Translations under genes and position numbers: made by a program | Shown here: positions 2,858 through 33,879 of the stretch, piece after piece | Layout: every line of letters starts with the position of its first letter | How positions within the stretch are numbered: the stretch's first letter is position 1 | The notes under the pieces: model-generated | Databases searched by the model: none | What the model was told of the DNA's origin: nothing | Seen by the model: only the letters and a program-made list of their open reading frames with translations | NCBI GenBank assembly: GCA_028873925.1 | Contig: JAPPNA010000033.1 | Coordinates: forward strand, 1-45,976 | Direction: 5' to 3' | DNA from: Bacteroidota bacterium | GTDB taxonomy: Bacteria; Bacteroidota; Rhodothermia; Rhodothermales; Bin80 | Length of the DNA: 45,976 nucleotides

Positions 2858-2868
2858 CGACCGGGCCA

Positions 2869-3741: not shown

Positions 3742-3786
3742 AGCATCTTGAATGAAAATACACCAGATTCGTACCGACCCCGGTGC

Positions 3787-4251
3787 TTACGAGCCGGCAC
3801 GCTCTCCGACGCGGGCCATGCCGATCCGCAAACGGTTGCGGGCCCGCTCCAGTGCACGCTCTGCCCGAACGCGGTCCAGGGACATATCAGCGGCTCGCAG
3901 TCTTTCCAGCGCACGCTGTTCGGCCGCCCGCGCGCGGTCCACATCAATATGGCTGGCCGGTTCGGCGGTCTCCGCGAGCACCGTGCCCACATTCCCGATG
4001 ATCTCCAGGAACCCGCCACTGGTGGCAAAGGTCAGTTTCTGAGCGTCCGGGAGCGTCAGGATGATAGGTCCGACCTCAAGCGTAGCAATCATAGGGGCAT
4101 GATTGTAGCGTACTTCAAAGCCACCCGCAGCTCCCGGTGCACGGATGCGGGCAACTATGCCCTGGAATACGCGCTTGTCCGGTGCTACGATATCCAGCGT
4201 CAGGGTACGACCCTCTGATCGGGCCGCCGAAATATCTGTGTTGCTTTCCAC
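3787..4251 (-). CDS. atpC: ATP synthase F1 epsilon subunit
   Basis: The 154-residue product is the epsilon subunit, which joins the F1 rotor and modulates ATP hydrolysis at the cytoplasmic face of the membrane. The N-terminal beta-sandwich is clear: TLTLDIVAPDKRVFQGIVARIRAPG, the conserved NHAPMIATLEVGPI turn and FATSGGFLEIIGNVGTVLAETAE. The C-terminal part (about residues 103-150) is the expected Arg/Ala-rich two-helix domain (AEQRALERLRAADMSLDRVRAERALERA). It is longer than the typical 135 residues because of about 15 N-terminal residues. The start is GTG at 4251, and it follows atpD by 31 bases on the same strand. Confidence 0.93.
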   Translation of the reverse strand: MESNTDISAARSEGRTLTLDIVAPDKRVFQGIVARIRAPGAAGGFEVRYNHAPMIATLEVGPIILTLPDAQKLTFATSGGFLEIIGNVGTVLAETAEPASHIDVDRARAAEQRALERLRAADMSLDRVRAERALERARNRLRIGMARVGERAGS

Positions 4252-4282
4252 GGTGTTTTCCTGTGAGTCTGCCTCTACCCAA

Positions 4283-6164
<1,882 letters not shown>

Positions 6165-7240: not shown

Positions 7241-7733
7241 CTCGAGTTGCCATGCGTGATTCAGATCGGACATGGCGGCTCCTGCAGATTGAGTAATCTG
7301 GAGGAGGCATCCGGCGGCTCAAAGGCTGCTGGCCCAACGGCAGGGATCGGTAGATCGCCCCTGTCTGGCCGCAGTTACGGGCAGAACTGGAGATCTCGCT
7401 GCCGCGGCTTGATTCTGCAGCTCCAATGAGGTCTTAATAGGGCTGGAGCCCGCTCGGGCGGCATGGATTGTCCGGCTGAGCCATCGGATTGAACTTACGT
7501 TTACGCGCCGGCGCTTGACTGCGGTAAGAAGTCGCGGATGCACGGGGTTTCGGTGCGGCTGGAGCCCTGTTGCCACCGTCGGCGCGCGGTACTGGTCCGT
7601 TATGGAAGCGGCCACCCTGGCGTGCAGCCACGGTGTTGAGTGGCTGGGCCTCCAAGGGGCACCTGATCGGCTCTGAGGCTGATCCTGCACCGGGCTGGTT
7701 TGTACTTTGTGGATGCACCTAAGCTCAAGTAAT
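7241..7733. other. Intergenic stretch, degraded sequence
   Basis: This 493-base stretch precedes the metalloprotease gene. A minus-strand open frame of 94 codons (7434-7718) is Arg/Pro/Ala-rich and basic (for example KPRASATSYRSQAPARKRKF) and faintly recalls the basic tails of RNA helicases, but it has no domain and could be chance in GC-rich DNA. No RNA gene or clear promoter was recognised. Confidence 0.3.
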
Positions 7734-10241
7734 ATGAGATTCCGTTGGCCTGCCTTAGTGATCACTGTTTGCCTGCTGAGTTTTCCGGCGCGGGGACAGG
7801 ATCTGCCCACCATTGCCGGCAAAACCGAAGGTACCGACAGGCGGGATGGCTTTGTGCCCGTCTATTGGGATGCAAAGGCCGGTAAGATCTACCTGGAAAT
7901 ATCGTCATTCAATGAGCCGCTTTTGTATGTGACCTCGCTGCCTGCCGGTCTGGGGTCCAATGATGTAGGTCTGGACCGGAGCCAGCTGCGCAATACGCGG
8001 CTGGTCCAGTTTGAGCGCATCGGGCCGAAGGTCTTGCTGGTTATGCCGAACCTGCGCTACCGGGCTACCTCCGACAACGCGGCAGAGCGGCTCGCGGTAC
8101 AGGATGCGTTTGCAGAGGCGATCATCTGGGGGTTCGATGTGGTGGCCGAGTCCGGGTCAGCTGCACTGGTTGATGCCACCTCTTTTGTCGTTCGGGATGG
8201 TCACGGCATCGCCCGGCAGCTCCAGAATACTCAGCAGGGCCGATTCACGGTGGATCGGAGCCGGAGTACTGCGGTGCCTGATCTGCTGAAGGCTTTCCCG
8301 CACAATACGGAACTGGAGGCACGCGTAACGTTCGCGACGGATGCGCCCGGACGGTATGTTCGGGATGTGGCTGCGGATCCGAATTCCGTCACGCTGCGGG
8401 TGCGTCATTCGCTGATCCGGCTGCCGGACGATGGCTATACGCCCAGGGTTTTTCATCCAGGATCGGGCTATATGGCCCAAAGCTATCGGGATTATGCCGT
8501 ACCCATTGGCGAGGACATGGTGCAGCGGTATATTCGGCGTCACCGGCTGGTTAAGGCGGACCCCCTGGCGGCGGTCAGCGATCCGGTTGAACCCATAGTG
8601 TACTACCTTGACCTGGGTACGCCGGAACCGGTTCGCGGTGCCCTGCTGGAGGGTGCACGCTGGTGGGAAGAGGCGTTTGAGGCCGCCGGATTCAGTAACG
8701 CCTTCCGTGTTGAGCTGCTTCCCGACAGCGCGGATGCCATGGATGTCCGGTACAACACCATCCAATGGGTCCATCGCGCCACCCGGGGCTGGAGCTACGG
8801 CTCTTCCGTGACAGATCCCCGAACAGGTGAAATCATCAAGGGCCATGTATCACTGGGTTCGCTGCGGGTGCGTCAGGACTATCTGATTGCGGAAGGGCTG
8901 CTGATGCCCTACGGCGATTCGCTGCTGGCCGAGGATCCCATGCTGGCCATGGCGCTGGCGCGTATCCGACAGCTGTCAGCCCATGAGGTCGGACATACAC
9001 TCGGTCTTACCCACAACTTTGTGGCATCGGTTAACAGCCGGTCCTCCGTGATGGATTACCCGGCTCCGTATGCGATGCTGGATGAAGAGGGCCAGGTAAG
9101 TCTGGAACAGGCCTATGCGATCGGGATCGGTGATTGGGATAAGGTCGCCATACAGTACGGCTACGCGCAGGCAGCGCCGGGAGAGTCAGAAACAGCCATG
9201 CTGGCAGGCATACTGGACCGCGCGGCGCAGCGGGGGCTTCAGTTCATTACAGACGCGGATGCCAGGCCCGCCGGTGCAGCCCATCCTCAGTCCAATCTCT
9301 GGGACAATGGAGATAACATGGTACTCGCACTGGAGCATGAGATGGCTGTTCGTGAAGCGGCGCTTGAGAGATTCGGAGAGCAGGCGATACGTTCAGGTCG
9401 GCCGCTGGCTATGCTTGAAGAAGTCCTGGTACCGCTGTATCTGCGCCATCGCTACCAGTTGGAAGCCACCATCAAACTCCTTGGAGGTGCCACCTACACC
9501 TATGCGCTGCGGGGTGGAACGCAGCCCCTGCCGGAAGCTGTCCCCGGAACCACCCAGCAAAGTGCATTGGATGTCCTGGTGCGGGCAGTGCAGCCGCCAG
9601 CACTGCGTCTGCCCGCCAACATTCGGACAAGAATTCCGCCCAGACCACCGGGATACGGGGCCCACAGAGAGCTCTTTGACCGCCACACCGGGCTGATATT
9701 TGATCCCTATACGCCGGCAGCTTCCGTGGCGGACCTCGTCTTCAGCCTGGTCCTCAATCCGGAACGCGCCGCGCGGCTTACCTATCAGGCGGACCATGAT
9801 CCATCATTGCCGGATTTTGAAAGCGTCCTGGAGGAAATAAGCAGTGCAACCTGGGGCGTTCCGGTGGTCAGTGATCCCTATGATGCGGAACTGCAGCGCG
9901 TGGTTCAGCAGGTTTGGATAGATGAGCTGATGACCTTGGCGGCCAATGGTCGGACGGCCGGAGCGGTACGGGCGATGGCCTCGCAGAAACTGCGGGAGTT
10001 TCATGAGTGGCTGCAGGAGAATCCGGGCAGCGCGCGCGACGAGGAAACACGGGCGCACCGCAGTATGGTGCTGGATGACATTGACCGATTCCTGCTGCGT
10101 GACTATGATCCGGACGAGGAGCGGCCATCAGTCACTTTGCCGCCGGGCGCGCCTATCGGCTCGCCTGCCTACGAGGAGCGAAGGTTGAGGAGGCGAACAT
10201 TTCTTGAAGTGACTCAGATTGAATACTGCAGCGGTCAGTAG
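7734..10241 (+). CDS. Secreted zinc-dependent metalloprotease (DUF5117/DUF4953 family)
   Basis: The 835-residue product has a signal peptide (MRFRWPALVITVCLLSFPARGQ), which supports ATG at 7734 over an ATG nine codons upstream. The middle contains the zincin motif HEVGHTLGLTHN, with zinc-ligand His417 and His421 and catalytic Glu418. It is followed by a SVMDYPAPYAML Met-turn-like segment, as in the large DUF5117-DUF4953 metalloproteases. The N-terminal third (FVPVYWDAKAGKIYLEIS, PLLYVTSLPAGLGSNDVGLDR) matches the family's DUF5117 region. Length and order are normal, so it should be a periplasmic or extracellular protease with unknown substrate. It stands alone on the plus strand and converges with the helicase gene, 26 bases apart. 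Confidence 0.88.
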   Translation: MRFRWPALVITVCLLSFPARGQDLPTIAGKTEGTDRRDGFVPVYWDAKAGKIYLEISSFNEPLLYVTSLPAGLGSNDVGLDRSQLRNTRLVQFERIGPKVLLVMPNLRYRATSDNAAERLAVQDAFAEAIIWGFDVVAESGSAALVDATSFVVRDGHGIARQLQNTQQGRFTVDRSRSTAVPDLLKAFPHNTELEARVTFATDAPGRYVRDVAADPNSVTLRVRHSLIRLPDDGYTPRVFHPGSGYMAQSYRDYAVPIGEDMVQRYIRRHRLVKADPLAAVSDPVEPIVYYLDLGTPEPVRGALLEGARWWEEAFEAAGFSNAFRVELLPDSADAMDVRYNTIQWVHRATRGWSYGSSVTDPRTGEIIKGHVSLGSLRVRQDYLIAEGLLMPYGDSLLAEDPMLAMALARIRQLSAHEVGHTLGLTHNFVASVNSRSSVMDYPAPYAMLDEEGQVSLEQAYAIGIGDWDKVAIQYGYAQAAPGESETAMLAGILDRAAQRGLQFITDADARPAGAAHPQSNLWDNGDNMVLALEHEMAVREAALERFGEQAIRSGRPLAMLEEVLVPLYLRHRYQLEATIKLLGGATYTYALRGGTQPLPEAVPGTTQQSALDVLVRAVQPPALRLPANIRTRIPPRPPGYGAHRELFDRHTGLIFDPYTPAASVADLVFSLVLNPERAARLTYQADHDPSLPDFESVLEEISSATWGVPVVSDPYDAELQRVVQQVWIDELMTLAANGRTAGAVRAMASQKLREFHEWLQENPGSARDEETRAHRSMVLDDIDRFLLRDYDPDEERPSVTLPPGAPIGSPAYEERRLRRRTFLEVTQIEYCSGQ

Positions 10242-15969: not shown

Positions 15970-16995
15970 TCACGGTCCCGCAAAATGGTCGTGGCCGCCA
16001 GGGCCGAGGGCCACCTCATCGCCTTCTTCCCTGCGCAGGAAGACTGCCCCTGCATCCGCGGTTAAACGGCCAATGACCGTAAACAGGCAGGCATCCATGC
16101 GTGCACAATCTTCCGCGGGTGCCGCAAATAGAAGTTCATACTCATCACCGCAGCTGAGCGCAAATTCCATCGCACGGGCTGGATCACTCTCCAGCATGCG
16201 AACGGCACGGGCAACGGGTACAGCCGCCAGGTCAATTGCAGCGCCGCATCCGCTGGCTCGGCATATGTGATGCACCTCGGCGGTCAATCCGTCAGAGATA
16301 TCAATCAGCGCATGGGGCTTTACGCCGGCCTTTTTCCACCTGTTGACCATATCTGTCCTAGGCATCGGGCGCAGATGGCGGTCCTTGGCCTGCCTGACGA
16401 TGGCTTCATCGAGGCCTGCCATCGGCGGAGATTGGCTTTCGGCCTCAAAGCGCAACAGTTGAAGCCCGATATCCGCAGCTCCCAGCGGGCCGGTTACACA
16501 AAGCAGATCGCCCGGTAGCCCGCCGTCGCGATACACCACATCCTGCTCAGCGGCTTCGCCGATAATGGTGATGCTGAGTGTGACCCGATCCGACCGTGTC
16601 GTGTCACCGCCGATGATGTCAACATCCTGCTGCTCGGCGCACAGTCGCAAGCCCTCGTAGATTCGCTCTGCATCAGCAACCAGAAACTTAGGCGGCAAAG
16701 CTAAGGCCACCGTGGCATACCGCGGCACAGCGTTCATGGCGGCGATGTCGCTGATGCTGGCGGCCATAGCCTTGCCGCCCACATCTACCCAGGAATAAAA
16801 CCTCGCGTCAAAGTGATACTGATCCGCAAAGGCATCCGTACTGACGACATGGACCCTACCCGGAGCCGTACGATAAACGGCTGCATCATCACCGATAGCG
16901 CGGACGATCCGGCTCCCCCGGGGTTTGCCGATAATGTCCGCCAACCGGCGAATCAGTTTGAATTCGCCCACACCACCCACATGCCGGCCCTTCAT
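15970..16995 (-). CDS. thiL: Thiamine-monophosphate kinase
   Basis: ThiL (341 residues, cytoplasmic) phosphorylates thiamine phosphate to the coenzyme thiamine diphosphate with ATP. Family signatures appear in order: GEFKLIRRL, the Mg/ATP-binding AIGDDAAVY, VVSTDAFADQYHF, SISDIAAMNAVPRY, IIGGDTTRSDRVTLSIT, VTGPLGAADIGL, LIDISDGLTAEVHHIC and SCGDEYELLF. The length is normal. Its ATG at 16995 overlaps the anmK stop by four bases, so it is translationally coupled as the end of a long minus-strand operon. No TPP riboswitch is visible upstream, fitting its internal operon position. Confidence 0.95.
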   Translation of the reverse strand: MKGRHVGGVGEFKLIRRLADIIGKPRGSRIVRAIGDDAAVYRTAPGRVHVVSTDAFADQYHFDARFYSWVDVGGKAMAASISDIAAMNAVPRYATVALALPPKFLVADAERIYEGLRLCAEQQDVDIIGGDTTRSDRVTLSITIIGEAAEQDVVYRDGGLPGDLLCVTGPLGAADIGLQLLRFEAESQSPPMAGLDEAIVRQAKDRHLRPMPRTDMVNRWKKAGVKPHALIDISDGLTAEVHHICRASGCGAAIDLAAVPVARAVRMLESDPARAMEFALSCGDEYELLFAAPAEDCARMDACLFTVIGRLTADAGAVFLRREEGDEVALGPGGHDHFAGP

Positions 16996-18170
16996 TCCTG
17001 CCTGCCCGCCGGGCAGTACTTGCCCAAAACGGCGCTGCGGCTCGCCCCCGTCACCGAGGGCATACCGGTGGGGTGGCCGCTGGCGGTTTCATGGGCCAGC
17101 ACCGCAAAGCACAAGGCCTCCTTTGCGTCTTCATCAATACCGTACTTGCCGGACGTATTGACGGGAATAGGGGCGAAGCAGTTCCGCAACATTTCCATCA
17201 GAGTCTGATTGTGCACCCCGCCTCCGGCCACTATCAGGCGGTCCAGCGGATGGTGCTCTGCCACAAAGTTTTCGTACGCCGCAAAGATACTCTTGGCCGT
17301 GAACATTGTAGCGGTAGCCATTATGTCGTGTGGCGGCAGATCCATCGCCGTACTCTGCAAGGATGCCACATAGGCATGACCAAAGCGCTCACGCCCGGTG
17401 GATTTAGGCGGTTTCTGCACCAGAAAATCATCCAGGAACAGGGCCTCCATAAGCTCGTCGCAGACCTCGCCCTGAGCGGCCAGTCTGCCCCAATCGTCAT
17501 AAGGCATACCGAACAGGCCGCGGGCCAGCGCGTCAATAACCAAATTGGCCGGGCCCGTATCAAATCCGTAAACCGAATTTCGGTCCTGACCTGCCGGAAG
17601 TAGGGTCAGATTGGCAATACCGCCAAGATTCAGGCAGCCGCGGTTTTCGGTTGGATGGCTCAGCAGGACATAATCCAAATACGGTACCAGCGGGGCACCC
17701 TGGCCGCCCAGCCCCATGTCCGCCATCCGAAAATCTCCAACCACATCAACCCCCACCAGATGTGCCAACACACTGGGATCTCCAATCTGAAGCGTTGAAC
17801 GGATATCCATGCCCGCACAGTTCTCCGGCTCAGGTACATGGCGCACGGTCTGCCCGTGACAGCCGATCAGATCGAGATCATCGATCGACAGGCCTGCCGC
17901 AAGCACAGCCCGCTGGATCGCATCGGCATACGTATGCGCAAGACGGATATTGAGCCGGCACAACGCGCCCGGATCCACCCATTCTGATGTCGCGACTTCA
18001 AGGAGTTGTTTTCCAAGGGCAGGGTTGAAACCTGTGCTGTTGTGAAAGAGCACATCAGTTGTGATTTCCGTCTGGTGCCCGCTGAGACGGACCAGGCACA
18101 CATCTACTCCATCGAGCGAAGTGCCGCTCATTATCCCGGCCACCAGCCGCGTATCCGTGCGGCTGTTCAC
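16992..18170 (-). CDS. anmK: Anhydro-N-acetylmuramic acid kinase
   Basis: The 392-residue cytoplasmic kinase cleaves the 1,6-anhydro bond of anhydro-MurNAc released from murein and phosphorylates it to MurNAc-6-phosphate for recycling. The signature GIMSGTSLDGVDV is at residues 12-24. It is followed by IGCHGQTVRHVPE, LQIGDPSVLAHLVGVDVVGDFRM split over the substrate site, GGQGAPLVPYLD, NLGGIANLTLLP, GFDTGPANLVIDAL and VAGGGVHNQTLMEML with GIDEDAKEALCFAVLA near the C-terminus. The start is GTG at 18170, overlapping the stop of the TPR-like gene by four bases. Its envelope-recycling role fits the lptE and glycosyltransferase genes upstream. Confidence 0.96.
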   Translation of the reverse strand: MNSRTDTRLVAGIMSGTSLDGVDVCLVRLSGHQTEITTDVLFHNSTGFNPALGKQLLEVATSEWVDPGALCRLNIRLAHTYADAIQRAVLAAGLSIDDLDLIGCHGQTVRHVPEPENCAGMDIRSTLQIGDPSVLAHLVGVDVVGDFRMADMGLGGQGAPLVPYLDYVLLSHPTENRGCLNLGGIANLTLLPAGQDRNSVYGFDTGPANLVIDALARGLFGMPYDDWGRLAAQGEVCDELMEALFLDDFLVQKPPKSTGRERFGHAYVASLQSTAMDLPPHDIMATATMFTAKSIFAAYENFVAEHHPLDRLIVAGGGVHNQTLMEMLRNCFAPIPVNTSGKYGIDEDAKEALCFAVLAHETASGHPTGMPSVTGASRSAVLGKYCPAGRQE

Positions 18171-18736
18171 GAGCCGGGCATGGTTTGGGCCAGCAATGTG
18201 AGCCGCTCAGCTTCAGCCAGATAGGTGTCCCGCTGGTCTGGAGAGCCTTCGGCCAGTCGGCGGTACACGACAGCAGCCTCGGCATACTTGTGCTGCGCGA
18301 CGAGAATTCGGCCGAATGTAGGAGAAACAATGGTCGATTCGTCATCCAGGTCCACCAGGTCATGCATCAGGGACGGATCAATTTCCGGTGAATCCGATGC
18401 GGGGGCCGCGTTCAGGTGGGCAATCATCTGATCAATGGGATCGTCGCCCCCGTCCAGTGTCCAGACCGCAACCAGGTTGGCCGCCAGCTCATAGGTGTAT
18501 TTGATGGGGACCGCCTCAATTGGGGGGTCTGCTTCCGGCTCCGGGCCACGGCAGGTGTCCCACACGCCGGCGGCCTCAGCATGGAATCCGGCCTCCTCCA
18601 AGGCCCACGCATACAGGTAGGAGGCACTCCTGTCATGGGGATCAGAAACCCGCCATTGCAGCAACGTCGGCAATACCTGCGCGGCCTGACCTTTGCGAAT
18701 AGCTGCGATGGCCTGCTCCTTCGTCGTTATCGTCAT
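18167..18736 (-). CDS. TPR-like hypothetical protein
   Basis: The 189-residue product starts at ATG 18736 (an open frame upstream belongs to no family). It has no signal peptide. Helical repeats of tetratricopeptide type are suggested by RSASYLYAWALEEAGFHAEA near residues 38-58 and by TFGRILVAQHKYAEAAVVYRRLAEG near the C-terminus; the middle is acidic. The C-terminal repeat with its 'Q-HKYAEAAVVYRRL' pattern matches the last TPR of proteins seen next to lptE in this phylum. It overlaps both neighbours by four bases (glycosyltransferase upstream, anmK downstream), so it is certainly co-translated. The function is unknown; a scaffold role in envelope metabolism is a guess. Confidence 0.7.
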   Translation of the reverse strand: MTITTKEQAIAAIRKGQAAQVLPTLLQWRVSDPHDRSASYLYAWALEEAGFHAEAAGVWDTCRGPEPEADPPIEAVPIKYTYELAANLVAVWTLDGGDDPIDQMIAHLNAAPASDSPEIDPSLMHDLVDLDDESTIVSPTFGRILVAQHKYAEAAVVYRRLAEGSPDQRDTYLAEAERLTLLAQTMPGS

Positions 18737-20184
18737 GGGGTGTGCAAGCCAGTCCGGGTGGGGAACCACTCCTGCATATTGTAAAGGGTCATCGCAATAT
18801 AGGCAAATGCAAAAACAGCTTGGAAGGCCATGGACAGCCAAATATACTCCAATCCCATCGCTACAAGGCCGGCCAGGCAATATATGGCCAGCAGTCCTTC
18901 CAGTGCGGCCCTAAGCGGAGCGCGCTGGCTGTCGTACGGGGACCTGCCGTGTTGCGCCGCCTTAGGTGTGCGCTCAAAGGGTGTGACACGGCGGCGTAGG
19001 GCTTGCCATAACGCCTTAGAATTGCTGATGGCCAGTGCCATGGATCCGGCCATGAATACGGGAAAACCCCAGATTCGACGGTGCCAGTCCGGATACAGAG
19101 CACGCTGCGCAAACAGTTGGGCCAGAAAAAAACCCAATAACCCACACAGTCCCAAGCTCAGTATGGCAAAGTAGACCGGGCCCGGGCCGCTGCCGCGCGC
19201 CTCCAGCAACGATAGGGGGGCGTGCAGAAGCGCTACTACTACCAGCGCCGGATATACGATATGGGAGGTAAGGTGCAGCGTGCCTTCGATCTTTACCCCC
19301 GGCAAGGACTTGGAGCGCCACAGCGCAGTGAGGAGTTTGCGTGCGGCTTCGGCAGTCCCTTTGGTCCACCGGAACTGCTGCGCGCGCAGCGCGGACAGCG
19401 TAGCTGGCAATTCCGCGGGCGCTTCCACATTGGACATAAACAGGAACCGCCAGCCCTTCAGCTGCGCACGGTAGCTCAGATCCACATCCTCTGCAAGAGT
19501 GTCGCTGTGCCAGCCGCCAGCCTCGTGAATGCAACGCGTTCGCCAAACGCCCGCTGTACCGTTAAAATTGACAAAATATCCCGCGGCCTGACGTGCCGCC
19601 TGTTCCAGCGCGAAATGCGCATCCAAAGCCCAGGCCTGCAAACGCGTCAGCATGGATAGCCCTGCATTGAGATGGCCCCAGCGGGCCTGCACCATGCCAA
19701 CCCCCGGCTCTTCAAACTTGGGCACCAACCGACGGAGGAAATCCGAATTCGGTACAAAGTCCGCGTCAAAAATCGCTATCAGCGAGCCGCGGGCCCGGGC
19801 GAGGCCGTTCTGGAGTGCACCCGCCTTGTAGCCGGTTCGGTGGGCCCGCCGAATGTGAACTATGTCCACCCCACGCGCCTTCCAGTGGAGGACCGCATCA
19901 GCTACCACATCCGCGGTCTGATCATTAGAGTCATCCAACACCTGGATGTCCAGATTAGGGTAGTCCAATGCTGCACAGGCATCAATAACGCGTCGGGCAA
20001 CCAGAGCTTCATTGAACAGCGGGATCTGCACCGTTACCCATGGTAACTCCTTATCCGGAATCGGGCAGGTACGATTACGATCCTTAAGCGAGTCATGCCG
20101 GGCCCGCTGCAGCGAAAGCCACAACAGATTGATCCCGTACAGAACCAGCACCGACATGGCCGCGGCGTAAAGGACTGCAACCAT
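18733..20184 (-). CDS. Membrane glycosyltransferase family 2 (cellulose-synthase/glucosylceramide-synthase type)
   Basis: The 483-residue protein starts at ATG 20184 (an in-frame TTG at 20202 is possible). An N-terminal transmembrane helix (about 3-25) precedes a GT-A domain: VTVQIPLFNEALVARRVID, the first aspartates at LDDSND (Asp84/85), the DAD metal site (140-142), the catalytic-base region TLAEDVDLSYRA (Glu232/Asp233) and QQFRW (269-273), the QxxRW motif of processive enzymes. Four to five C-terminal helices follow. It should transfer a sugar from a nucleotide donor at the inner membrane; the acceptor cannot be told. The context (lptE, anmK) suggests an envelope glycan or glycolipid. Confidence 0.9.
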   Translation of the reverse strand: MVAVLYAAAMSVLVLYGINLLWLSLQRARHDSLKDRNRTCPIPDKELPWVTVQIPLFNEALVARRVIDACAALDYPNLDIQVLDDSNDQTADVVADAVLHWKARGVDIVHIRRAHRTGYKAGALQNGLARARGSLIAIFDADFVPNSDFLRRLVPKFEEPGVGMVQARWGHLNAGLSMLTRLQAWALDAHFALEQAARQAAGYFVNFNGTAGVWRTRCIHEAGGWHSDTLAEDVDLSYRAQLKGWRFLFMSNVEAPAELPATLSALRAQQFRWTKGTAEAARKLLTALWRSKSLPGVKIEGTLHLTSHIVYPALVVVALLHAPLSLLEARGSGPGPVYFAILSLGLCGLLGFFLAQLFAQRALYPDWHRRIWGFPVFMAGSMALAISNSKALWQALRRRVTPFERTPKAAQHGRSPYDSQRAPLRAALEGLLAIYCLAGLVAMGLEYIWLSMAFQAVFAFAYIAMTLYNMQEWFPTRTGLHTP

Positions 20185-26708: not shown

Positions 26709-26781
26709 TGCCCTGTAGCTCAATTGGCAGAGCGCCTGGCTCTGGACCAGGAGGTTCCAGGTTCGAATCCTGGCGGGGCAA
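26709..26781 (+). tRNA. tRNA-Gln (anticodon CTG)
   Basis: The cloverleaf is complete: acceptor arm TGCCCTG pairs with CGGGGCA (26774-26780) and A26781 is the discriminator. The D arm is AGCTCAATTGGCAGAGC. The anticodon stem CCTGG/CCAGG holds loop CTCTGGA, with anticodon CTG at 26742-26744 (reads CAG). The T arm is CCAGGTTCGAATCCTGG. CCA is not encoded. The anticodon decides the identity. The 3' end lies five bases from the stop of the converging glycosidase gene. Confidence 0.95.
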
Positions 26782-26786
26782 CTATC

Positions 26787-27554
26787 CTACCGCTTGGGCC
26801 GGACTACCAAAAACGCGCCATATCGTTTGCCGGATTGTCGGGTCCGACCCAGAGGGGGCGCATAGAGCGTACTGATGGCTCCATCCAGATACAGGGCATT
26901 CTGCACCCCCAGGTTTTCCCGGAAGTACATCGCGAAGTCGTGGAAATTCACAGCTCCGTTGGAAATGGCCACAAAGATCCTGCCTTCCGGGGCGACACCT
27001 ATACCGCTGCGCAGGCGACAGTTGATCGAGCCCCGCATAAAGGCGGGATGGACACGGCCGTCTGATAGCAGCAGCGGGCCGGACTGAATGGCAAAAGTAG
27101 CGGAGCCTTCCTGCGTCGAGAATTGTGAGGCATCAATTATGGCTGCGCCATGGGGTGTGATATAGAAGATCCCGTTGGGTTTGAGGTAGAAATTGCCGTA
27201 CCCGTCGGCCAGGTTGATGGGATTCAGCGTGAGGCTACGCTCAATGTAGAGACCCGCCGGAGTCAGGTTCTTTTCAAAAATGCCTGCGTTAGTAATGGCA
27301 ATCACAGAATCCCCTTGTGACTCCAGGTAGGCCAGCAGGCTGCCGATCCTGGCAAACGGCTCTCCCGAAGCGGGATTGCGCCAGTAGAGCGCGATTTCAT
27401 GCCGCATCGGATCGATGGCAACCACATCATAGGGCGCGTTGGCATCCAGGACACACGGCCGGTTCTGCAGCGTTTGGCGCAGGGAGCTGCAGCCAGTCAA
27501 TAAAGCTGTTGCCGCCAATACGGCCAGCGCCGAGCGGCAGGCGTGTGTGGACAT
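26787..27554 (-). CDS. Phosphodiester glycosidase (NAGPA/DUF2233) lipoprotein
   Basis: The 255-residue product has a lipoprotein signal with lipobox LLTGC (Cys22). Then comes the DUF2233/NAGPA fold: VVAIDPMRHEIALYW, ITNAGIFEKNLTPAGLYIE, FYLKPNGIFYITPHGAAIID, FAIQSGPLLLSDGRVHP, SGIGVAPEGRIFVAIS, and the last motif NALYLDGAISTLY. Human NAGPA removes a GlcNAc cap from phosphodiesters; bacterial relatives act on phospho-linked sugars in the envelope, so the substrate is unknown. The start ATG at 27554 shares one base with the stop of the upstream methyltransferase (TGATG), so translation is coupled. Confidence 0.85.
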   Translation of the reverse strand: MSTHACRSALAVLAATALLTGCSSLRQTLQNRPCVLDANAPYDVVAIDPMRHEIALYWRNPASGEPFARIGSLLAYLESQGDSVIAITNAGIFEKNLTPAGLYIERSLTLNPINLADGYGNFYLKPNGIFYITPHGAAIIDASQFSTQEGSATFAIQSGPLLLSDGRVHPAFMRGSINCRLRSGIGVAPEGRIFVAISNGAVNFHDFAMYFRENLGVQNALYLDGAISTLYAPPLGRTRQSGKRYGAFLVVRPKR

Positions 27555-28183
27555 CAGGCGCGCTCGTAGATGGCAATCTGCCAGATCAGGGTTTGATCTG
27601 AAGCTGCCAATTGAAAACCGGCTGCCTGCAGGAGCGCATCCACATTCGAGGGATCATGATGGAAAACCCTGAAAGCATGGTGCCGGGCCATTTGGATGAT
27701 GTTGAAGAGCCGGATCCCCATGCATGACCACCAGGTGCCTCTCGGATACACCATCCCGATGCGCCATCGGGTCTGTTGCGCCACCGTGGTCAGCAGTAGG
27801 TCCAGGTTCGGATAGCAGCACAGTACGCGGTCCAGCGTGGCCACATCTACCGGTCTCAGGTCGGCCGCCAGCGTTGTAAAGTCGCCGAAACGCGTCGTAA
27901 TCCGCTCGGCATGTCCCTGGCGCTGAGCCTCCTGCACCAAGGCCTGCAGATAGGCGCGCGATGCATCCACAACGGTGACCCTGTGGGCACCGGCAGCCAG
28001 CACGCTATGTGTGACGGCACCCACGCCGCCCCCTATATCAAGGATCGATCGGCCATCAACCGGCCCTAAGGCCATCAGCATTTTCCTGGCCGATCTAAGC
28101 GGCCCGCGTCGGCGGTAGCGGCGCAGATCGTGCCGCGCCATTGTGTCGTCAAAAAAGCGATCGGCCGCCTGGCAGCACGACAT
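27554..28183 (-). CDS. SAM-dependent methyltransferase, Mg-protoporphyrin methyltransferase-like
   Basis: The 209-residue product begins at ATG 28183: MSCCQAADRFFDDTMARHDL, then RRYRRRGPLRSARKML, then the SAM-binding glycine motif ILDIGGGVGAVTHSVLAAGA. VTVVDASRAYLQALVQEAQ follows, then TLDRVLCCYPNLDLLL and a PRGTWW-like acceptor region. The 'F..DLRRYRRRGP' opening and the CCYP motif are shared with the BchM/UbiE-like group annotated as Mg-protoporphyrin IX O-methyltransferase C-terminal proteins. No other tetrapyrrole genes are nearby, so the substrate is open. It is coupled to the glycosidase lipoprotein downstream. The open frame runs 20 codons upstream without family residues. Confidence 0.8.
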   Translation of the reverse strand: MSCCQAADRFFDDTMARHDLRRYRRRGPLRSARKMLMALGPVDGRSILDIGGGVGAVTHSVLAAGAHRVTVVDASRAYLQALVQEAQRQGHAERITTRFGDFTTLAADLRPVDVATLDRVLCCYPNLDLLLTTVAQQTRWRIGMVYPRGTWWSCMGIRLFNIIQMARHHAFRVFHHDPSNVDALLQAAGFQLAASDQTLIWQIAIYERA

Positions 28184-28494
28184 GAATCTGATTGGATAGG
28201 GACTGCCATTGGTACAGCGGCAGCGGGCCGCGGTTCTGGTCACGAATGTCCTACGGCAACTATAACTGGGGTCAGCGACAATTACTCTACCTGTTGGTTG
28301 GGGGAATCATGGCCAGCTACGCTTGGTTGAGGCAGGTGATGTAACTCACGGAACTACAAGCGATTGCGGGGTAAATGGGGTGTCACATGGTGATGGGGCC
28401 GTTGTTGCCCCGTTTCTAAGATCTAATTATCGCTGCCCCTAATTTCAATTATCGCCAAACACACGAAGCCTCGCAGGGCCGCATAGCTGATCGG
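28184..28494. other. Intergenic region with a weak hairpin
   Basis: These 311 bases lie upstream of the methyltransferase and downstream of the propeller pseudogene. GGGGC (28395-28399) and GCCCC (28407-28411) can form a 5-bp stem followed by GTTTCT on the plus strand, but no plus-strand gene ends here, so it is a poor terminator candidate. The part at 28420-28460 is AT-rich and could hold the methyltransferase-glycosidase promoter. Confidence 0.3.
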
Positions 28495-29279
28495 CTATAG
28501 GCCTGCTGCGTGCCCGAACTGACTCAGTTCATGCCCCAATTCCTCGTTCGGGGCGATCGAAAACAGTGTTTTCACCTGGAGAAAAGGAGCATTCGAGTCT
28601 GCTGCAGGCGGGCGCAGCCCGCTCAGACCTGCAAGTGTGGCTGCGTTGCGCTGCCATAATGCATACCCGACCGACCTTTGTCTGAAAGTCACTGTATTCC
28701 CGCCGCGTCGCTCTTCAATCGGAGCTGGCTTAATGCCTTCAAATCTCACGCGGTGCAAAATCTCACCATCCTCCGAGTATCCGAAAAAGATCGGTATACT
28801 GCCCCTCCTGCTGCCGCTCAAACACATGAATTTGAAGCGCAAAAATCACAGCGTACCTACCTGCGTCAGAGAACCAAAATGATTGGGCAGACGTGAATTC
28901 GCCAGGACCGTTTCCTGCGCGGCCAAAGGATCCGACGAAGGTGCCATCAGGTTCGTAGATCAGTACGGCACTGAGTCCGCTGTCCGGAATGTAAACATGT
29001 CCATCAGGACCCACATGAACATCCGCGATATCACCCAGCATCTCATGCATTTCGCCCTCACTGACTCCGATCGTTACCGAGTCGGTCAGCCCCAGAGAGG
29101 CGAGATAATCCGGGCCCACATCCATAGCGCCGCTGGGTAGGGATACTGAGCTTGCGGGTGCGGAAAACTCCGGCAAGTATCTATCAGACGGATGAGTGCG
29201 CGCTTGAGACCCGAAGGCCCACCTGGCCCCAAACCGTAGCAATCAGCACGAGATGTTTGAGCTCGAGTTGAAGACGCAC
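28495..29279 (-). pseudogene. Six-bladed beta-propeller (NHL/DUF5128-type) protein, at least two frameshifts
   Basis: Three minus-strand frames in succession make one protein. A leader from GTG 29279 (LKHLVLIATVWGQVGLRVSS, hydrophobic) runs to a stop near 29187. The next frame continues with DRYLPEFSAPASSVSLPSGA, DIADVHVGPDGHVYIPDSGL, then LIYEPDGTFVGSFGRAGNGP, a clear NHL blade. Near 28800-28830 the frame changes again to GSIPIFFGYSEDGEILHRVR and ends at 28495. Family members are exported propellers of unknown function, common in Bacteroidota, often beside small exported peptides. Here a Cys-rich peptide frame ends nine bases upstream of the leader. With two or more shifts and a length short of six blades, it is a decaying gene. 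Confidence 0.6.
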
Positions 29280-29287
29280 GGAAAAGG

Positions 29288-29635
29288 TCAACACCAGAAT
29301 TTCCACCATGGACAACACGAACTCATGTTACATTCATCCCCCTCCATATCAAAATTCGCCCCGATTTTGGGGTTTCCATCCTCGTCAAGCGGGCTGGACA
29401 TGCAGTCCTTAATATTCACTTCCCCGCCATCTGGCAGCTCAATTGATATCGTAGTGCAGGCATCATACTCATACGGACGAGCCGCCGCACTCTCAATCTC
29501 CGTCGCGGCCGCGGTGATCAGGACGCTCGTGAGCCACGCACCCGCGCGGTGACGAGGAAAACGGCCCGAACGGCCGCCAAATTCAGATTCGCAAGATTTT
29601 CCTTCAGTAGGTAACTGTTTGTTCAGGTGAGAATT
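29288..29635 (-). CDS. Small Cys-rich exported peptide frame next to the propeller gene (NVEALA-like context)
   Basis: A minus-strand frame is open from 29635 to the TGA at 29290-29288 (115 codons) without a standard ATG/GTG/TTG start; CTG at 29626 or a start in another frame is possible. The part from about 29536 looks protein-like: a hydrophobic WLTSVLITAAATEIESAAA, then YEYDACTTISIELPDGGEVN, IKDCMSSPLDEDGNPKIG, and a striking Cys/Trp-rich end, CNMSSCCPWWKFWC. In Bacteroidota, small exported NVEALA-type peptides are encoded directly upstream of six-bladed propeller genes; the position and size fit that habit, though the NVEALA sequence itself is not seen. It may have lost its start like its neighbour. 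Confidence 0.35.
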   Translation of the reverse strand, partial: NSHLNKQLPTEGKSCESEFGGRSGRFPRHRAGAWLTSVLITAAATEIESAAARPYEYDACTTISIELPDGGEVNIKDCMSSPLDEDGNPKIGANFDMEGDECNMSSCCPWWKFWC

Positions 29636-30001
29636 TTACGAAAGAAATCCGGGTTGAGTCAACCCTTGAGGTCGGACCCACGAAAAGTGCACAAGAGTCA
29701 GGCAGTTTTCCGCATTGAGCCTGGATTCCCAGCCGGATTGCCCGGCTGTGCCACTCGAGTCAGCCGATAAGGCCGGCACCTGAGTCAAGAGACCGTGTAA
29801 ACGCGGCAGGAAAGACGTACCTGCTGCTGGAGACAATGGGGTGTTGGGCTTGGGGCGGCTGAAGGGGCATCATCATATCGCTACAGCCGAGCAGCGTGTC
29901 CCCGCAATCAGGCGAAAGAACGACCGGTGACCCTCTTACGCTGGCGCACGCCGGTGGGACCGCGAATCCATTTGCCGGTCGCGGCTGGGCGTGGCACGGA
30001 A
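29636..30001. other. Intergenic stretch, no recognised gene
   Basis: This 366-base stretch lies between the Cys-rich peptide frame and the tesA 3' end. Short frames on both strands lack any motif. GCCGG/CCGGC-type short repeats occur near 29741-29790 but no stable terminator is apparent. Confidence 0.3.
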
Positions 30002-30664
30002 TCACCGGGCCACCAACAGCTCCAACAGACCGCGCATTACGGCCCAAACATTGTCCGCCAGCCTCTCCTGACCCTCCGCAGTGGGGTGAATGCCATCAGG
30101 CTGATTCAGGGCGGCTACGCCACCGACTCCCTCCAGCAGAAAAGGAATCAGATAAGATCCGGTCTGCCGAGCGACTTCAGGGAATATTTCTCTGAAAGCC
30201 TGCGTGTAGATCGCGCCAAGATTCGGGGGCACTTGCATGCCAGCCAGGATTACCTGCATCCCGGGCTGCTCGCGCTTGGCCATACGTATGATACTGAGCA
30301 GATTGGCCTGTGTATCTTCTACGGGCAGGCCGCGTAATCCATCATTGCCCCCCAACGCAACCACCAGTATGTCTATGTCCGTCCGCGACAGCCACTGCAG
30401 CCGCCTGAGTCCGCCGGCGGTGGTTTCGCCGCTGACCCCGGCATTGACCATGGTGACAGGCCAGCCTAACTCGTCAGCTCTGCGCTGGAGCACTGCCGGG
30501 AAAGCCTGGCTGATCCTGAGCCCGTGTCCGGCCGTGAGGCTGTTGCCGAGAAAAACTACCGTAATCCCGGAATCCGCCGGCAGCGGATCAGAATGCAGGG
30601 GCTGGCAAAGTGCGATCTGATGAACACAACAGGCCAGTCCAAAGTAAAGCGCGTGCCTGAACAA
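30002..30664 (-). CDS. tesA: SGNH-hydrolase esterase (TesA-like)
   Basis: The 220-residue product starts at TTG 30664 with a signal peptide (to about residue 21), so it works in the periplasm. The GDSL-type block I reads VFLGNSLTAGHG with nucleophile Ser42. Block II is NAGVSGETTAGGL, block III is ALGGNDGLRG (oxyanion Asn107), and block V is DGIHPTAEG with Asp190 and His193 completing the triad. It is the TesA/arylesterase type that hydrolyses acyl esters, thioesters and lysophospholipids. It is divergent from ybbA with six bases between, as in E. coli, where tesA and ybbA also abut. Confidence 0.92.
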   Translation of the reverse strand: MFRHALYFGLACCVHQIALCQPLHSDPLPADSGITVVFLGNSLTAGHGLRISQAFPAVLQRRADELGWPVTMVNAGVSGETTAGGLRRLQWLSRTDIDILVVALGGNDGLRGLPVEDTQANLLSIIRMAKREQPGMQVILAGMQVPPNLGAIYTQAFREIFPEVARQTGSYLIPFLLEGVGGVAALNQPDGIHPTAEGQERLADNVWAVMRGLLELLVAR

Positions 30665-30670
30665 AAGCAG

Positions 30671-31363
30671 ATGCCTGATTCAATTCTTCAAGTAGAGCGG
30701 CTAACGAAAACCTACCGAAGCGGGTCCCGCGACCTGACCGTACTCGCGGATGTGTCGTTTGAAATCAGCTCAGGTGAAACCTGCGCGATCCTGGGACCAT
30801 CCGGGAGCGGCAAAACCACCCTGCTGGGACTGTGCGCCGGACTGGATACACCCTCTTCCGGGCGCGTAATCCTTCGCAATCAGGATCTGAGCCAATGCTC
30901 AGAGAATACTCGGACCGCCCTGCGTCGCGCAACGGTGGGCTTTGTCTTTCAAACGTTCCGGCTTCTGGCCACGCTCACGGCATTGGAAAATGTAATGGTG
31001 CCGGCGGAACTGAGCGGCCGGGGTCAGGCCCGTAACCGGGCCCGTGACCTGTTGCATCAGGTCGGTCTGGAAGGCCGTGAGCATCACTATCCGGCCCAGC
31101 TAAGCGGGGGAGAGCAGCAGCGGGTGGGACTCGCGCGCGCATTCATTAATAGGCCGGACATTCTGTTCGCCGATGAACCGACCGGCAACCTTGACGCGGC
31201 TACGGGGGATCGGATCAAAGAACTGCTGTTTGAGCTGAACCGGAATGCCGGCACGGCACTGATTGTGGTGACCCATGACCTGACCCTGGCCTCAAACTGC
31301 CGGCGTGCGCTGCATCTGCATGGCGGCCGCATTACCCGCGACACGGCGCACCCGACCGCATGA
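30671..31363 (+). CDS. ybbA: ABC transporter ATP-binding protein (YbbA/LolD type)
   Basis: The 230-residue nucleotide-binding subunit starts at ATG 30671 (another ATG at 30620 would overlap tesA). Walker A is GPSGSGKTT (42-50), the Q-loop is FVFQTFRLLATLTALENVMVP in two parts, the signature is LSGGEQQ (144-150), Walker B is ILFADEPTGNLD and the H-loop is VVTHD. It belongs to the MacB/LolD class that pairs with FtsX-type permeases and powers export or lipoprotein-like substrate extraction. Its stop overlaps the ybbP start by four bases (ATGA), so the two subunits are made together. The neighbouring tesA matches the E. coli tesA-ybbA-ybbP locus. Confidence 0.93.
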   Translation: MPDSILQVERLTKTYRSGSRDLTVLADVSFEISSGETCAILGPSGSGKTTLLGLCAGLDTPSSGRVILRNQDLSQCSENTRTALRRATVGFVFQTFRLLATLTALENVMVPAELSGRGQARNRARDLLHQVGLEGREHHYPAQLSGGEQQRVGLARAFINRPDILFADEPTGNLDAATGDRIKELLFELNRNAGTALIVVTHDLTLASNCRRALHLHGGRITRDTAHPTA

Positions 31364-33879
31364 ACCTGTTTGACCGCTGGCTCTGGATAATGGCCTGGCG
31401 GGAAAGCCGGGGCAGCCGGCACCGTCTGGTGCTGTTTCTGTCGTCTATGACGGTAGGCGTAGCCCTGCTTACCGCGCTGACTTCTACCGGAGACAGCCTG
31501 GAAAAAACCGTACATGATGAGGCTCGCCAGCTGTTGGGTGCAGATCTGCGCATCGCGTCCTCAAGACCTTTTACAGAGGACCAGCAGAAGGTCATTCGGC
31601 AGCTGGGCGGCGACCAGGCAAACCGCGTGTCGTTCCTCTCCATGGCTCTCTTTCCCGAACAGGAACGGACCCGGATGGTTATGGTCCGCGTCATTGAAAG
31701 GGGCTATCCGCTTTACGGATCGGTGGAGACTGATCCGCCGGAGGCCGCCGACAGCTACCTGGATGATCAGCAGGCCCTGGTGGATCACGGCCTGATGAGC
31801 GGTATGGGGCTGGCTGCCGAAGACTCTATCCAGATCGGACGCAACCGGCTGGCTATCGCCGGGGCGATCCGGCGGGCACCGCGCGAAATCCCGATCGGCA
31901 TGATCGTAATGCCGCCGGTCTATATCCCTGCCGGAGCCCTGGACAGTACGCTGCTGGCACGCGGTTCCATGGCCGAGCATGATGTCTATGTGCGGCTTCA
32001 TGGTCGCACAAATCAGGAAATCGCCGAGCTTAAGGACTCCCTGGAGGCAACGCTGGATCTGGATGTGGACACGGCCGAGGAAGAGCAGGAGGCCTGGAGA
32101 GAGGTGCTGAAGTTCTTCCACCGTTTTCTGGGGCTCTCAGGGTTCGCCGCACTGGTACTGGGCGGACTGGGGGTTGGTGGGGCAATTCGGGCCCATATTG
32201 ACCGCTGCCTCACTAACATTGCCGTGCTGCGCTGCCTCGGAGCCAGTTCAGGCCGAACACTCGGTGTGTACTTTGTGCAGGCGCTGATCCTGGGAAGCCT
32301 GGCGGGCCTGTTGGGCTGTCTGCTGGGCATGATGATTCAACTGGGGCTGCCGCGGGTACTGGAGGTATTCCTGCCTTTTTCGGTGCGCTTTATCGTCTCG
32401 TGGGACGGACTGGCAATCGGATTCGGGATCGGTCTGGTGGTCACACTGCTCTTCGCACTGATGCCGCTGCGGGATGTGCAGCGGGTGTCGCCATTGCGGG
32501 CCCTTCGGTTTGTGGTTGAACCGCTGCCGCGTACGCGGTTTCAATATGTGGTGTTTGTGATAATTGCTCTGGGGCTGGCGGCCGTTGCGTACATGCAGTC
32601 CGGTAGCTGGCAGACCGGTCTGGCCTACACCGCGGCACTAATCGTCGTATTCGGGGTCCTCACGCTCCTGGCGAAAGTGTTGATGAGCGCAGCTAAACGG
32701 CTGACCCGCCGAATCCGGCTCTACTCGCTGCGCCAAGGGGTGGCCAATCTGCATCGGCCCGGGAACCAGACAACACTCATGATGCTGGCCCTGGGACTGG
32801 CAACCTTCATCGTAATGGTGATGCTGATAGGCGAACACATGGTCGTTCAGCGTATAGACACCTTTACGGGTGAGGATCGACCGGACATGATTCTATTTGA
32901 CATTCAGGCCGATCAGCTAAGCGGCGTGCACGATATTCTTGAAGCGGAAGCCCTACCTATGATCGAGTCCACGCCTATGGTTAACATGCGCATTCATGCC
33001 CGCGGGGATTCGACCGTAGCCGCGATGCAGCATGACTCCGTGCGCAGTAACCTATGGGCGTACACGCGCGAATACCGCAATACCTATCGCGCCGCCATAA
33101 CGGATGCCGAAGAGATCGTGGAAGGGGAATTTACCGGCAGCTACCACGGTTCAGGACCGATCCCTATCTCAATTGAGGAGGACTTTGCGCGCAATGCACT
33201 CGACGTTGCACTTGGCGACACGCTCGTCTTTGATGTGCAGGGCGTGCAGATTCCGACCGTAATCGGGAGCTTGCGCCGCGTGGACTGGGAGCAGGTGCGG
33301 GCCAATTTCTATGTGGTGTTTCCCGCCGGCGTACTGGAGGAGGCCCCCCAGACGTACATTGTCTCAACGCGCGAAGGGACCTTCAATCGCTACGAGCAGA
33401 TTCAGGCGGCCGTAGTTGCCGCCTATCCTAACGTTACAGTGCTAAGTCTAGATCTCTTGCTCAAAGTGTTTGATGAAGTGGTCGGGCGGATCAGATCCGT
33501 AATCAGCTTTATGGCCTATTTTTGTCTTGTGGCGGGCTTAATTGTTCTGATGGCAGCCGTAATGATCAGCCGATCGGGCCGAATCCGGGAGCAGGCTCTG
33601 CTCAAGACGCTGGGCGCGGCCCGGCACCAGGTGGCCGCAATAACGGTGTTTGAATACACGGTGCTGGGGCTGCTTTCCAGTATCGTAGGGCTGGTGCTGG
33701 CACTGGCTGGCTGCTGGCTGCTGGCCAGATTTGTCTTTGACCTTGCCTACGTTGTTGCGCCGGTTCCCATCATACTGGTCGTTAGCATGGTAGTACTGTT
33801 CACGGTGGCGGTAGGACAACTGAGCACTTGGCACCACTATGCGCGGCCTACCTTGGCCGTGCTGCGAACTGAAGTCTAG
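31360..33879 (+). CDS. ybbP: FtsX-family ABC transporter permease (YbbP type)
   Basis: The 839-residue inner-membrane protein has the YbbP build: an N-terminal transmembrane helix (about 25-45), a periplasmic MacB-like domain (to about 245), an FtsX-type three-helix unit (GLSGFAALVLGGLGVGGAIR, then the VLRCLGASSGRTLGVYFVQA coupling region), two more helices around 395-440, a second periplasmic domain, and a second FtsX unit near the end (MAYFCLVAGLIVLMAAVMI, LKTLGAARHQVAAITVFEY). This doubled FtsX arrangement separates it from the four-helix MacB. It works with the ATPase encoded just upstream. The substrate is unknown in any species, with lipid-related export being the usual suggestion. Confidence 0.92.
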   Translation: MNLFDRWLWIMAWRESRGSRHRLVLFLSSMTVGVALLTALTSTGDSLEKTVHDEARQLLGADLRIASSRPFTEDQQKVIRQLGGDQANRVSFLSMALFPEQERTRMVMVRVIERGYPLYGSVETDPPEAADSYLDDQQALVDHGLMSGMGLAAEDSIQIGRNRLAIAGAIRRAPREIPIGMIVMPPVYIPAGALDSTLLARGSMAEHDVYVRLHGRTNQEIAELKDSLEATLDLDVDTAEEEQEAWREVLKFFHRFLGLSGFAALVLGGLGVGGAIRAHIDRCLTNIAVLRCLGASSGRTLGVYFVQALILGSLAGLLGCLLGMMIQLGLPRVLEVFLPFSVRFIVSWDGLAIGFGIGLVVTLLFALMPLRDVQRVSPLRALRFVVEPLPRTRFQYVVFVIIALGLAAVAYMQSGSWQTGLAYTAALIVVFGVLTLLAKVLMSAAKRLTRRIRLYSLRQGVANLHRPGNQTTLMMLALGLATFIVMVMLIGEHMVVQRIDTFTGEDRPDMILFDIQADQLSGVHDILEAEALPMIESTPMVNMRIHARGDSTVAAMQHDSVRSNLWAYTREYRNTYRAAITDAEEIVEGEFTGSYHGSGPIPISIEEDFARNALDVALGDTLVFDVQGVQIPTVIGSLRRVDWEQVRANFYVVFPAGVLEEAPQTYIVSTREGTFNRYEQIQAAVVAAYPNVTVLSLDLLLKVFDEVVGRIRSVISFMAYFCLVAGLIVLMAAVMISRSGRIREQALLKTLGAARHQVAAITVFEYTVLGLLSSIVGLVLALAGCWLLARFVFDLAYVVAPVPIILVVSMVVLFTVAVGQLSTWHHYARPTLAVLRTEV

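What the first reader, a model, noticed from the sequence alone, without database searches (positions are those of the whole stretch)
28495..29635. Decaying propeller gene paired with a small Cys/Trp-rich peptide frame
The peptide frame ends at 29288 and the propeller leader begins at 29279, nine bases later. The peptide ends with CCPWWKFWC and has hydrophobic then acidic Cys-containing parts. This resembles the known Bacteroidota pairing of NVEALA-type exported peptides and six-bladed propellers, but with a different peptide sequence, so it may be a further peptide type. At least two frameshifts show the propeller is degraded.
Basis: partly seen in the sequence, partly recalled or inferred. 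Interest (0 to 1): 0.55.

Follow-up and report, generated by a model that had tools for sequence, protein, structure and literature searches.

The report
Decayed peptide–propeller–thioredoxin-like gene cassette
The window holds the ruined copy of a small gene set, apparently intact in related bacteria, that pairs a cysteine-rich exported-looking peptide with a propeller-shaped protein and often a thioredoxin-like protein; it matters because these peptides are many, highly variable and matched none of the family models tried.

Summary
On the minus strand an open frame ends CCPWWKFWC (stop 29288) and a six-bladed propeller gene starts at 29279. G002 (a Rhodothermales MAG, OX638318.1) carries the intact pair: a 104-residue peptide ending CLWWMFWC, then a full propeller. 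G008 carries a third copy. In the window both genes are dead: the peptide has no start codon, a frame break and two missing family cysteines; the propeller has two frame breaks, lacks about 80 inner residues (with both invariant cysteines) and its end.

The pair is one of many. Of 40 close propellers in relatives, 21 have such a peptide upstream; 18 of those 21 also have third-gene sequence behind, coding for a thioredoxin-fold protein with a predicted membrane helix. A peptide-only profile led to a propeller at 18 of 19 places not used as seeds. The peptides and third proteins scanned reached no curated Pfam or NCBIfam cut-off.

Best guess: the cassette exports and oxidatively folds variable disulfide-rich peptides of unknown target. 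Anatomy is shown; mechanism is inferred.

The parts
29288..29542 (-). remnant of exported Cys-rich peptide gene, conserved part (GAWLTS... to CCPWWKFWC, stop at 29288)
   Evidence: tblastn to P0002 E 3.9e-17
29543..29607 (-). probable peptide leader remnant in another frame, without a start codon where the relatives have ATG
   Evidence: DNA alignment with G002 and G008 and translation, read by eye; weaker than the rest
29291..29317 (-). CCPWWKFWC tail, mark of the WWxFWC subtype
   Evidence: DNA pattern found once each in G000, G002 and G008; two other hits (G019, G023) are unrelated frames
29216..29279 (-). propeller leader remnant (GTG at 29279)
28796..29215 (-). propeller body, N-terminal part (P0001 residues 64-203)
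   Evidence: E 2.7e-37; PF17170
28666..28815 (-). propeller body, later part in another frame (from about P0001 residue 283); about 80 residues before it are missing; similarity trails off weakly to 28462
   Evidence: E 8.8e-14 with P0001, 7e-12 with the G008 propeller
28244..28461 (-). stretch before the next gene (methyltransferase, 27554-28243) where the third, thioredoxin-like gene would be expected; no trace found
   Evidence: best gene-3 match in 27001-30700 has E 0.54

Best explanation
It is a dead copy of a cassette of Rhodothermia that in full has three genes: (1) a small peptide with a hydrophobic leader and a domain of mostly 6 or 8 cysteines that opens with CExxxC; (2) a six-bladed NHL-type propeller, often with a lipoprotein-like start; (3) a thioredoxin-fold protein with a predicted N-terminal membrane helix and one conserved cysteine at the active-site position. 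Shown: parts, order, same strand, occurrence in several families, decay in the window. Inferred: the peptide is exported by its leader, its cysteines are paired as disulfides outside the inner membrane with the help of protein 3, and the propeller docks the leader or the folding peptide, while the loops between cysteines are free to change; the product acts outside the cell, most likely as a bacteriocin-like or host-directed secreted peptide.
For: Intact pair in G002 and a third copy in G008; the window propeller fragment is closest to just these two of 37 long propellers. Peptide-only profile matches 17 of 114 order genomes, 44 matches; of the 30 held as loci 28 have a propeller on the same strand downstream, 18 of 19 among places not used as seeds. 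Of 40 close propellers 21 have a peptide match upstream, of 38 more distant ones 1. Third-gene sequence behind 24 of the 40, 18 of the 21 with a peptide; also in families f3 and f4 and in G197. Gene-3 model resembles thiol-disulfide oxidoreductases (Foldseek E 2.7e-4 at best; VIA-align Z 8.4 at best); motif cysteine in 29 of 29 stretches. Even cysteine number in 31 of 35 peptides, all complete to the stop. Over 22 cassettes leader distance follows propeller distance (r 0.81) more than mature-domain distance does (0.55; among 201 distant pairs 0.54 vs 0.17), mature identity outside cysteines 17%. NHLRC2/SOQ1 join a Trx-like domain to a six-bladed NHL propeller (PMC6107167, passages).
Against: No function was tested. 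The window peptide itself matches the family profile only weakly (E 0.021 and 0.008; no match of the own genome at E 0.001); its place in the family rests on G002 and G008. CxxC is complete in only 6 of 29 gene-3 stretches, so these may not be oxidases; one weak, broken copy (L142) has tyrosine at the cysteine's place. The gene-3 model is of middling confidence (pLDDT 69, five sequences) with low Foldseek TM-scores (0.25-0.36 by query length). The distance comparison uses related sequences, short alignments and one mis-split row (L148), and mature distance also correlates (0 of 5000 permutations). Only 12 of 40 sets had all three genes at full length. 19 of the 40 close propellers, the intact own-genome copy G000:C12 among them, gave no peptide match. 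One further peptide match (L244) has no propeller behind it.
Confidence: 0.5

Rival explanations
1. The peptide is a periplasmic metal-binding (copper or zinc) small protein and gene 3 a Sco-like metallochaperone; the propeller is a scaffold.
For: CExxxC opening motif; the gene-3 model also matches Sco1 structures.
Against: Residues between cysteines are hypervariable, cysteine number is mostly 6 or 8 and even, no histidine column is conserved in A2; gene 3 has one conserved cysteine, not CxxxC.
Confidence: 0.12
2. The peptide is a small regulator or inhibitor of its own propeller protein (a peptide-enzyme pair without a secreted product).
For: Leader and propeller co-vary; tight, often overlapping gene order.
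Against: The leader tracks the propeller better than the cysteine domain does; two tandem peptides stand before one propeller in f3 genomes and in G197.
Confidence: 0.2
3. An NVEALA-type system: the peptides are diverged NVEALA peptides.
For: Same order, peptide then propeller-like gene, in G329: 6 of 6 with a long frame, 5 of 6 in propeller families; one NVEALA unit continues with signal peptidase I and a small CxxC-bearing lipoprotein-like frame.
Against: PF14055 over cut-off in 0 of 59 order genomes; hhalign probability 2%; no NVEALA motif in A2.
Confidence: 0.15
4. The frame and its end are a chance open frame beside an unrelated broken propeller.
For: No start codon ahead of the conserved part; weak match to the family profile.
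Against: Homologues with the same tail and the same neighbour, third-position bias.
Confidence: 0.01

Closest known systems
NVEALA peptides (Pfam PF14055) followed by six-bladed propeller genes (PF15869/PF17170)
   Same: small peptide with hydrophobic start and cysteines directly before a propeller gene on the same strand, several units per genome: in G329 6 of 6 have a long frame behind, 5 of 6 in propeller families, one DUF4221
   Different: no NVEALA motif or profile match; CExxxC domain with mostly 6-8 cysteines; thioredoxin-fold gene right behind the propeller
NHLRC2 / SOQ1 (Trx-like domain plus NHL propeller in one chain)
   Same: thioredoxin-like fold combined with a six-bladed NHL-type propeller (PMC6107167, passages); top Foldseek matches of the propeller model are NHL domains; structures titled 'quenching protein' (7djk, 7djj), by recollection SOQ1, are among the matches
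   Different: two separate genes, the other order, plus a Cys-rich peptide; one conserved cysteine instead of the CC(I/V)NC motif; the paper found no conserved neighbours for bacterial NHLRC2 homologues in 7 genomes
TlpA/CcmG/DsbE-type thiol-disulfide oxidoreductases
   Same: thioredoxin fold with a predicted N-terminal helix on the model
   Different: no Pfam match for 6 proteins scanned; second CxxC cysteine mostly absent
Fulvocin C-related proteins (NF033852)
   Same: one weak peptide match, E 0.11
   Different: the one member over cut-off in 59 genomes (G058, L157) shows no propeller in its 1.5-kb flanks by eye

Membership tests
NVEALA (PF14055) | profile match over curated cut-off | tested here: not met
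   0 of 59 order genomes over cut-off, own one included; window peptide 0 Pfam families
NVEALA (PF14055) | NVEALA motif at the leader end | tested here: not met
   absent in A2, present in A6; hhalign probability 2%
NVEALA (PF14055) | propeller gene directly downstream (a works-like feature) | tested here: met
   window, G002, G008; 28 of 30 loci
Six-bladed propeller PF17170 | profile match over curated cut-off | tested here: met
   window body 28.7 vs 22.9 bits; P0001 28.4; NHL-like matches of the model
Six-bladed propeller PF17170 | complete set of blades in the window copy | tested here: not met
   broken, about 80 inner residues and the end missing
Thioredoxin-fold oxidoreductase (gene 3 of relatives) | thioredoxin fold | tested here: met
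   on a model of pLDDT 69: Foldseek E 2.7e-4 (low TM-scores) and VIA-align Z 8.4, rmsd 3.6 over 130 at best
Thioredoxin-fold oxidoreductase (gene 3 of relatives) | CxxC active site | tested here: not met
   CxxC in 6 of 29 stretches, first cysteine in 29 of 29
Fulvocin C-related (NF033852) | profile match over curated cut-off | tested here: not met
   best E 0.11, 1 of 15 peptides
Bacteriocin / RiPP | secreted, bioactive, processed product | not testable with these tools
   needs cultures or expression

The most novel reading that the evidence does not exclude
A so far unnamed class of leader-guided, hypervariable, disulfide-rich exported peptides of Rhodothermia, each made with its own NHL-type propeller and thioredoxin-fold partner, multiplying and decaying within genomes like an arms-race locus; together with NVEALA units it would show that peptide-before-propeller is a general secretion or maturation scheme in the Bacteroidota-Rhodothermota group.
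Probability: 0.4. Interest if true: 0.75.

Novelty: new variant of a known kind. Interest (0 to 1): 0.5.

Why it matters
I found no described function for NVEALA-propeller pairs: a full-text search for NVEALA found 0 papers in the held library, which misses most subscription journals. A second, sequence-unrelated peptide family with the same kind of partner, plus a redox-fold gene, turns 'a peptide next to a propeller' into a testable scheme: does the propeller bind the leader, and does the thioredoxin-fold protein form the disulfides? The peptides are variable and numerous, so they may be a source of new disulfide-rich bioactive peptides.

Tried and rejected
Rejected: NVEALA membership. Fulvocin relationship: weak match, no propeller seen by eye at the one true member; a paper search for fulvocin listed 12 papers, mostly on unrelated words. 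Chance frame. Anti-phage defence: 0 PADLOC matches for 3 proteins. Papers, seen as listings only: NVEALA 0; 6-bladed beta-propeller + peptide + Bacteroid 5, none on this by title and abstract start; propeller family names 1; Rhodothermales + sponge + symbiont + genome 5; NHLRC2 6, of which I read passages of one; thioredoxin + beta-propeller + cysteine-rich peptide + gene cluster + Bacteroid 0; natural product precursor and related terms 1; Rhodothermales + RiPP + cysteine-rich 0. These cover only the held library.

Homology of gene 3 to the small CxxC frame of the NVEALA cluster: not found (hhalign probability 0.2%). Sequence searches of solved structures with the gene-3 and peptide profiles: one chance-level match and none. 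Slot idea: the methyltransferase after the window cassette has a relative in G002 behind a different cassette type (L128), but 7 other neighbourhoods fetched, some short, showed no cassette, so a shared insertion slot stays unproven. A first reading of loci L029-L058 had the wrong orientation for minus-strand matches and was redone. One row (G001:C24) was left out of the 41 strongest rows; frames broken at the start were left out of the 35 counted peptides.

Full report
What is in the window. On the minus strand an open frame runs from 29635 to a stop at 29288 and ends ECNMSSCCPWWKFWC; the first ATG, GTG or TTG in it is a GTG at 29419. At 29279 a GTG opens a short hydrophobic stretch in another frame; the propeller body follows in a third frame (29215-28796) and, after a second break, in a further one (about 28815-28666).

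Are they real genes? Yes. A search of 59 genomes, the own one included, with the 87-residue frame gave a full-length homologue in G002 (E 6.6e-12, 42%). There the peptide is intact, 104 residues from an ATG, and ends CLWWMFWC; a 410-codon propeller frame overlaps its end. G002 is OX638318.1, a Rhodothermales MAG. G008 (JAPOTE010000086.1) carries a third copy: its peptide is split over two frames near a run of T, its propeller is intact and 58% identical to that of G002. tblastn of the G002 proteins onto the window gives E 3.9e-17 for the peptide and 2.7e-37 and 8.8e-14 for two propeller parts. Among 37 long propellers the window fragment is closest to those of G008 and G002 (129 and 127 bits, next 79), so peptide and propeller agree on their nearest kin. 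Differences are commonest in third codon positions. Against this, the window peptide matches the general family profile only weakly (E 0.021 and 0.008), and the own genome has no match at E 0.001.

State of decay. The window peptide has lost its start, shows a frame break before the conserved part and lacks two cysteines: the first of CExxxC is tyrosine and the fourth is gone; in the 15-sequence family alignment these two columns (C44, C79) are the invariant ones. The propeller lacks about 80 residues between P0001 positions 203 and about 283, hence both cysteines that are invariant among ten relatives (C217 and C275), and its end. No trace of the third gene was found in 27001-30700. The copy is dead.

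The wider family. The propeller search hit 11 of 16 genomes; in the ten genomes of the window's family that it covered there were 0 to 16 matches each. I took 40 of the 41 strongest rows (G001:C24 was left out) with long flanks. Of these 40, 21 have a match to the peptide profile upstream at E below 1e-5; the profile was trained in part on them. Of four rows just below, two have one (L075 and L078). Of 38 still weaker rows (some contigs end early) one has a match at E below 1e-3 (L081). The reverse test is cleaner: a peptide-only profile of 15 sequences found 44 matches in 17 of 114 genomes of the order. Of the 30 matches held as loci, 28 have a propeller downstream on the same strand; of the 19 not used as seeds, 18 do (two pairs of these share a place, and L201 and L202 are near copies). 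The exceptions are L204 and L214. Of two more loci seen later, L243 has a propeller in two frames and L244 has none behind it. The loci lie in three families of the order (f1, f3, f4). Across 394 genomes of the phylum sample 10 have matches at E 1e-4, all in this order except G197 of another family of the class, which has two tandem peptides, a propeller and third-gene sequence.

The third gene. Behind 24 of the 40 propellers lies sequence of a third gene, including 18 of the 21 with a peptide; fragments are counted. Its product has an N-terminal helix and a motif like ELVMVYIGSSxCxxxN. Six such proteins match no Pfam family. The AlphaFold model (pLDDT 69, five sequences) resembles thiol-disulfide oxidoreductases (Foldseek E 2.7e-4 at best, TM-scores by query length only 0.25-0.36; VIA-align Z 8.4 at best, rmsd 3.6 over 130 residues). 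A Z of this size alone is weak, but the rows are overwhelmingly thioredoxin-like by title, and the conserved cysteine (residue 77) lies between the first strand (66-73) and the next helix (85-102), as in thioredoxins. It is present in 29 of 29 motif stretches from matches at E below 1e-10, CxxC in 6; a weak, broken copy (L142) has tyrosine there. The propeller model is good (pLDDT 88); its best matches are NHL domains, which are six-bladed by general knowledge. At full-length thresholds 36 of 40 propellers, 17 peptides and 14 third genes pass, all three in 12, so incomplete or decayed sets are common.

What the peptides look like. A hydrophobic leader, then a domain opening CExxxC and usually closing with another CxxxC-like pair; 31 of 35 have an even number of cysteines in the domain, 22 of them 6 and 8 of them 8 (the 35 are related, all run to their stops). 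In 22 cassettes leader distances follow propeller distances (r 0.81, 0 of 5000 permutations), mature-domain distances less so (r 0.55, also 0 of 5000; among 201 distant pairs 0.54 against 0.17); identity of the mature domain outside cysteines is 17%. Sixty-column slices of the propeller itself give r of 0.86 or more, so shortness alone does not lower r that far, but gaps and one mis-split row (L148) blur the figure. An earlier run with 12 cassettes gave r 0.70 and 0.11, with another row mis-split.

Comparison with known systems. NVEALA (PF14055) is over its cut-off in 0 of 59 order genomes and in 1 of 247 of the phylum sample. In that genome, G329, all 6 NVEALA peptides stand before a long frame on the same strand; 5 of the 6 frames match six-bladed propeller families and one matches DUF4221. 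One unit continues with a signal peptidase I and a small frame with a CxxC motif. Profile comparison finds no homology between the peptide families nor between that small protein and gene 3. So this works like an NVEALA unit without being one. The combination of a Trx-like domain with a six-bladed NHL propeller is known in NHLRC2 and SOQ1; [quoted passage not shown]

Mechanism. Shown: composition, order, strand, conservation, variation and decay. Inferred: export, disulfide formation with gene 3, docking by the propeller, and an action outside the cell. Comparisons with TlpA-like function or bacteriocins rest on general knowledge, not on a test. That several source MAGs come from marine sponges is my recollection of their isolate names; no call shows it.

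Verdict. The window copy itself has no function; the family is what deserves work.

Noticed in passing
L238 (JAAXHW010000183.1), 1851-4947: A cassette with all three genes on a 6.3-kb contig binned as Candidatus Latescibacterota; either misbinned or horizontally moved.
   Followed up: no
L153 (G002:C1:331931-340911), 2866-4494: Propeller and start of the third gene read in one 543-codon frame, in a copy whose peptide and third gene look damaged; probably a product of decay, but a fusion would suggest contact.
   Followed up: partly
window 26787-28243, minus strand: Methyltransferase followed by a phosphodiester glycosidase (PF09992): by eye the same two genes follow each other in 5 of 7 neighbourhoods fetched (the other 2 end too early), while the upstream neighbour changes; G002 has another cassette type upstream.
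   Followed up: partly
L253 (G329:C2), 16204-19224: NVEALA peptide, propeller, signal peptidase I (PF10502) and a small CxxC-bearing lipoprotein-like frame in one run, a possible NVEALA maturation unit.
   Followed up: partly
L253 (G329:C2), 7525-9009: One NVEALA peptide stands before a DUF4221 (PF13970) gene instead of a named propeller family.
   Followed up: no
L209, L211, L212, L221 (family f3) and L256 (G197): Two tandem CExxxC peptides before one propeller.
   Followed up: no
L244 (G008:C16): A second peptide with the WWxFWC-subtype leader (RPCEDDVC), broken, behind another cassette's third gene and without a propeller of its own.
   Followed up: partly
window 30002-33879: Esterase-like gene divergent from an ABC transporter ATPase and permease, recalling the tesA-ybbA-ybbP arrangement (from memory, not tested).
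   Followed up: no
window 26709-26782, plus strand: tRNA-Gln.
   Followed up: no
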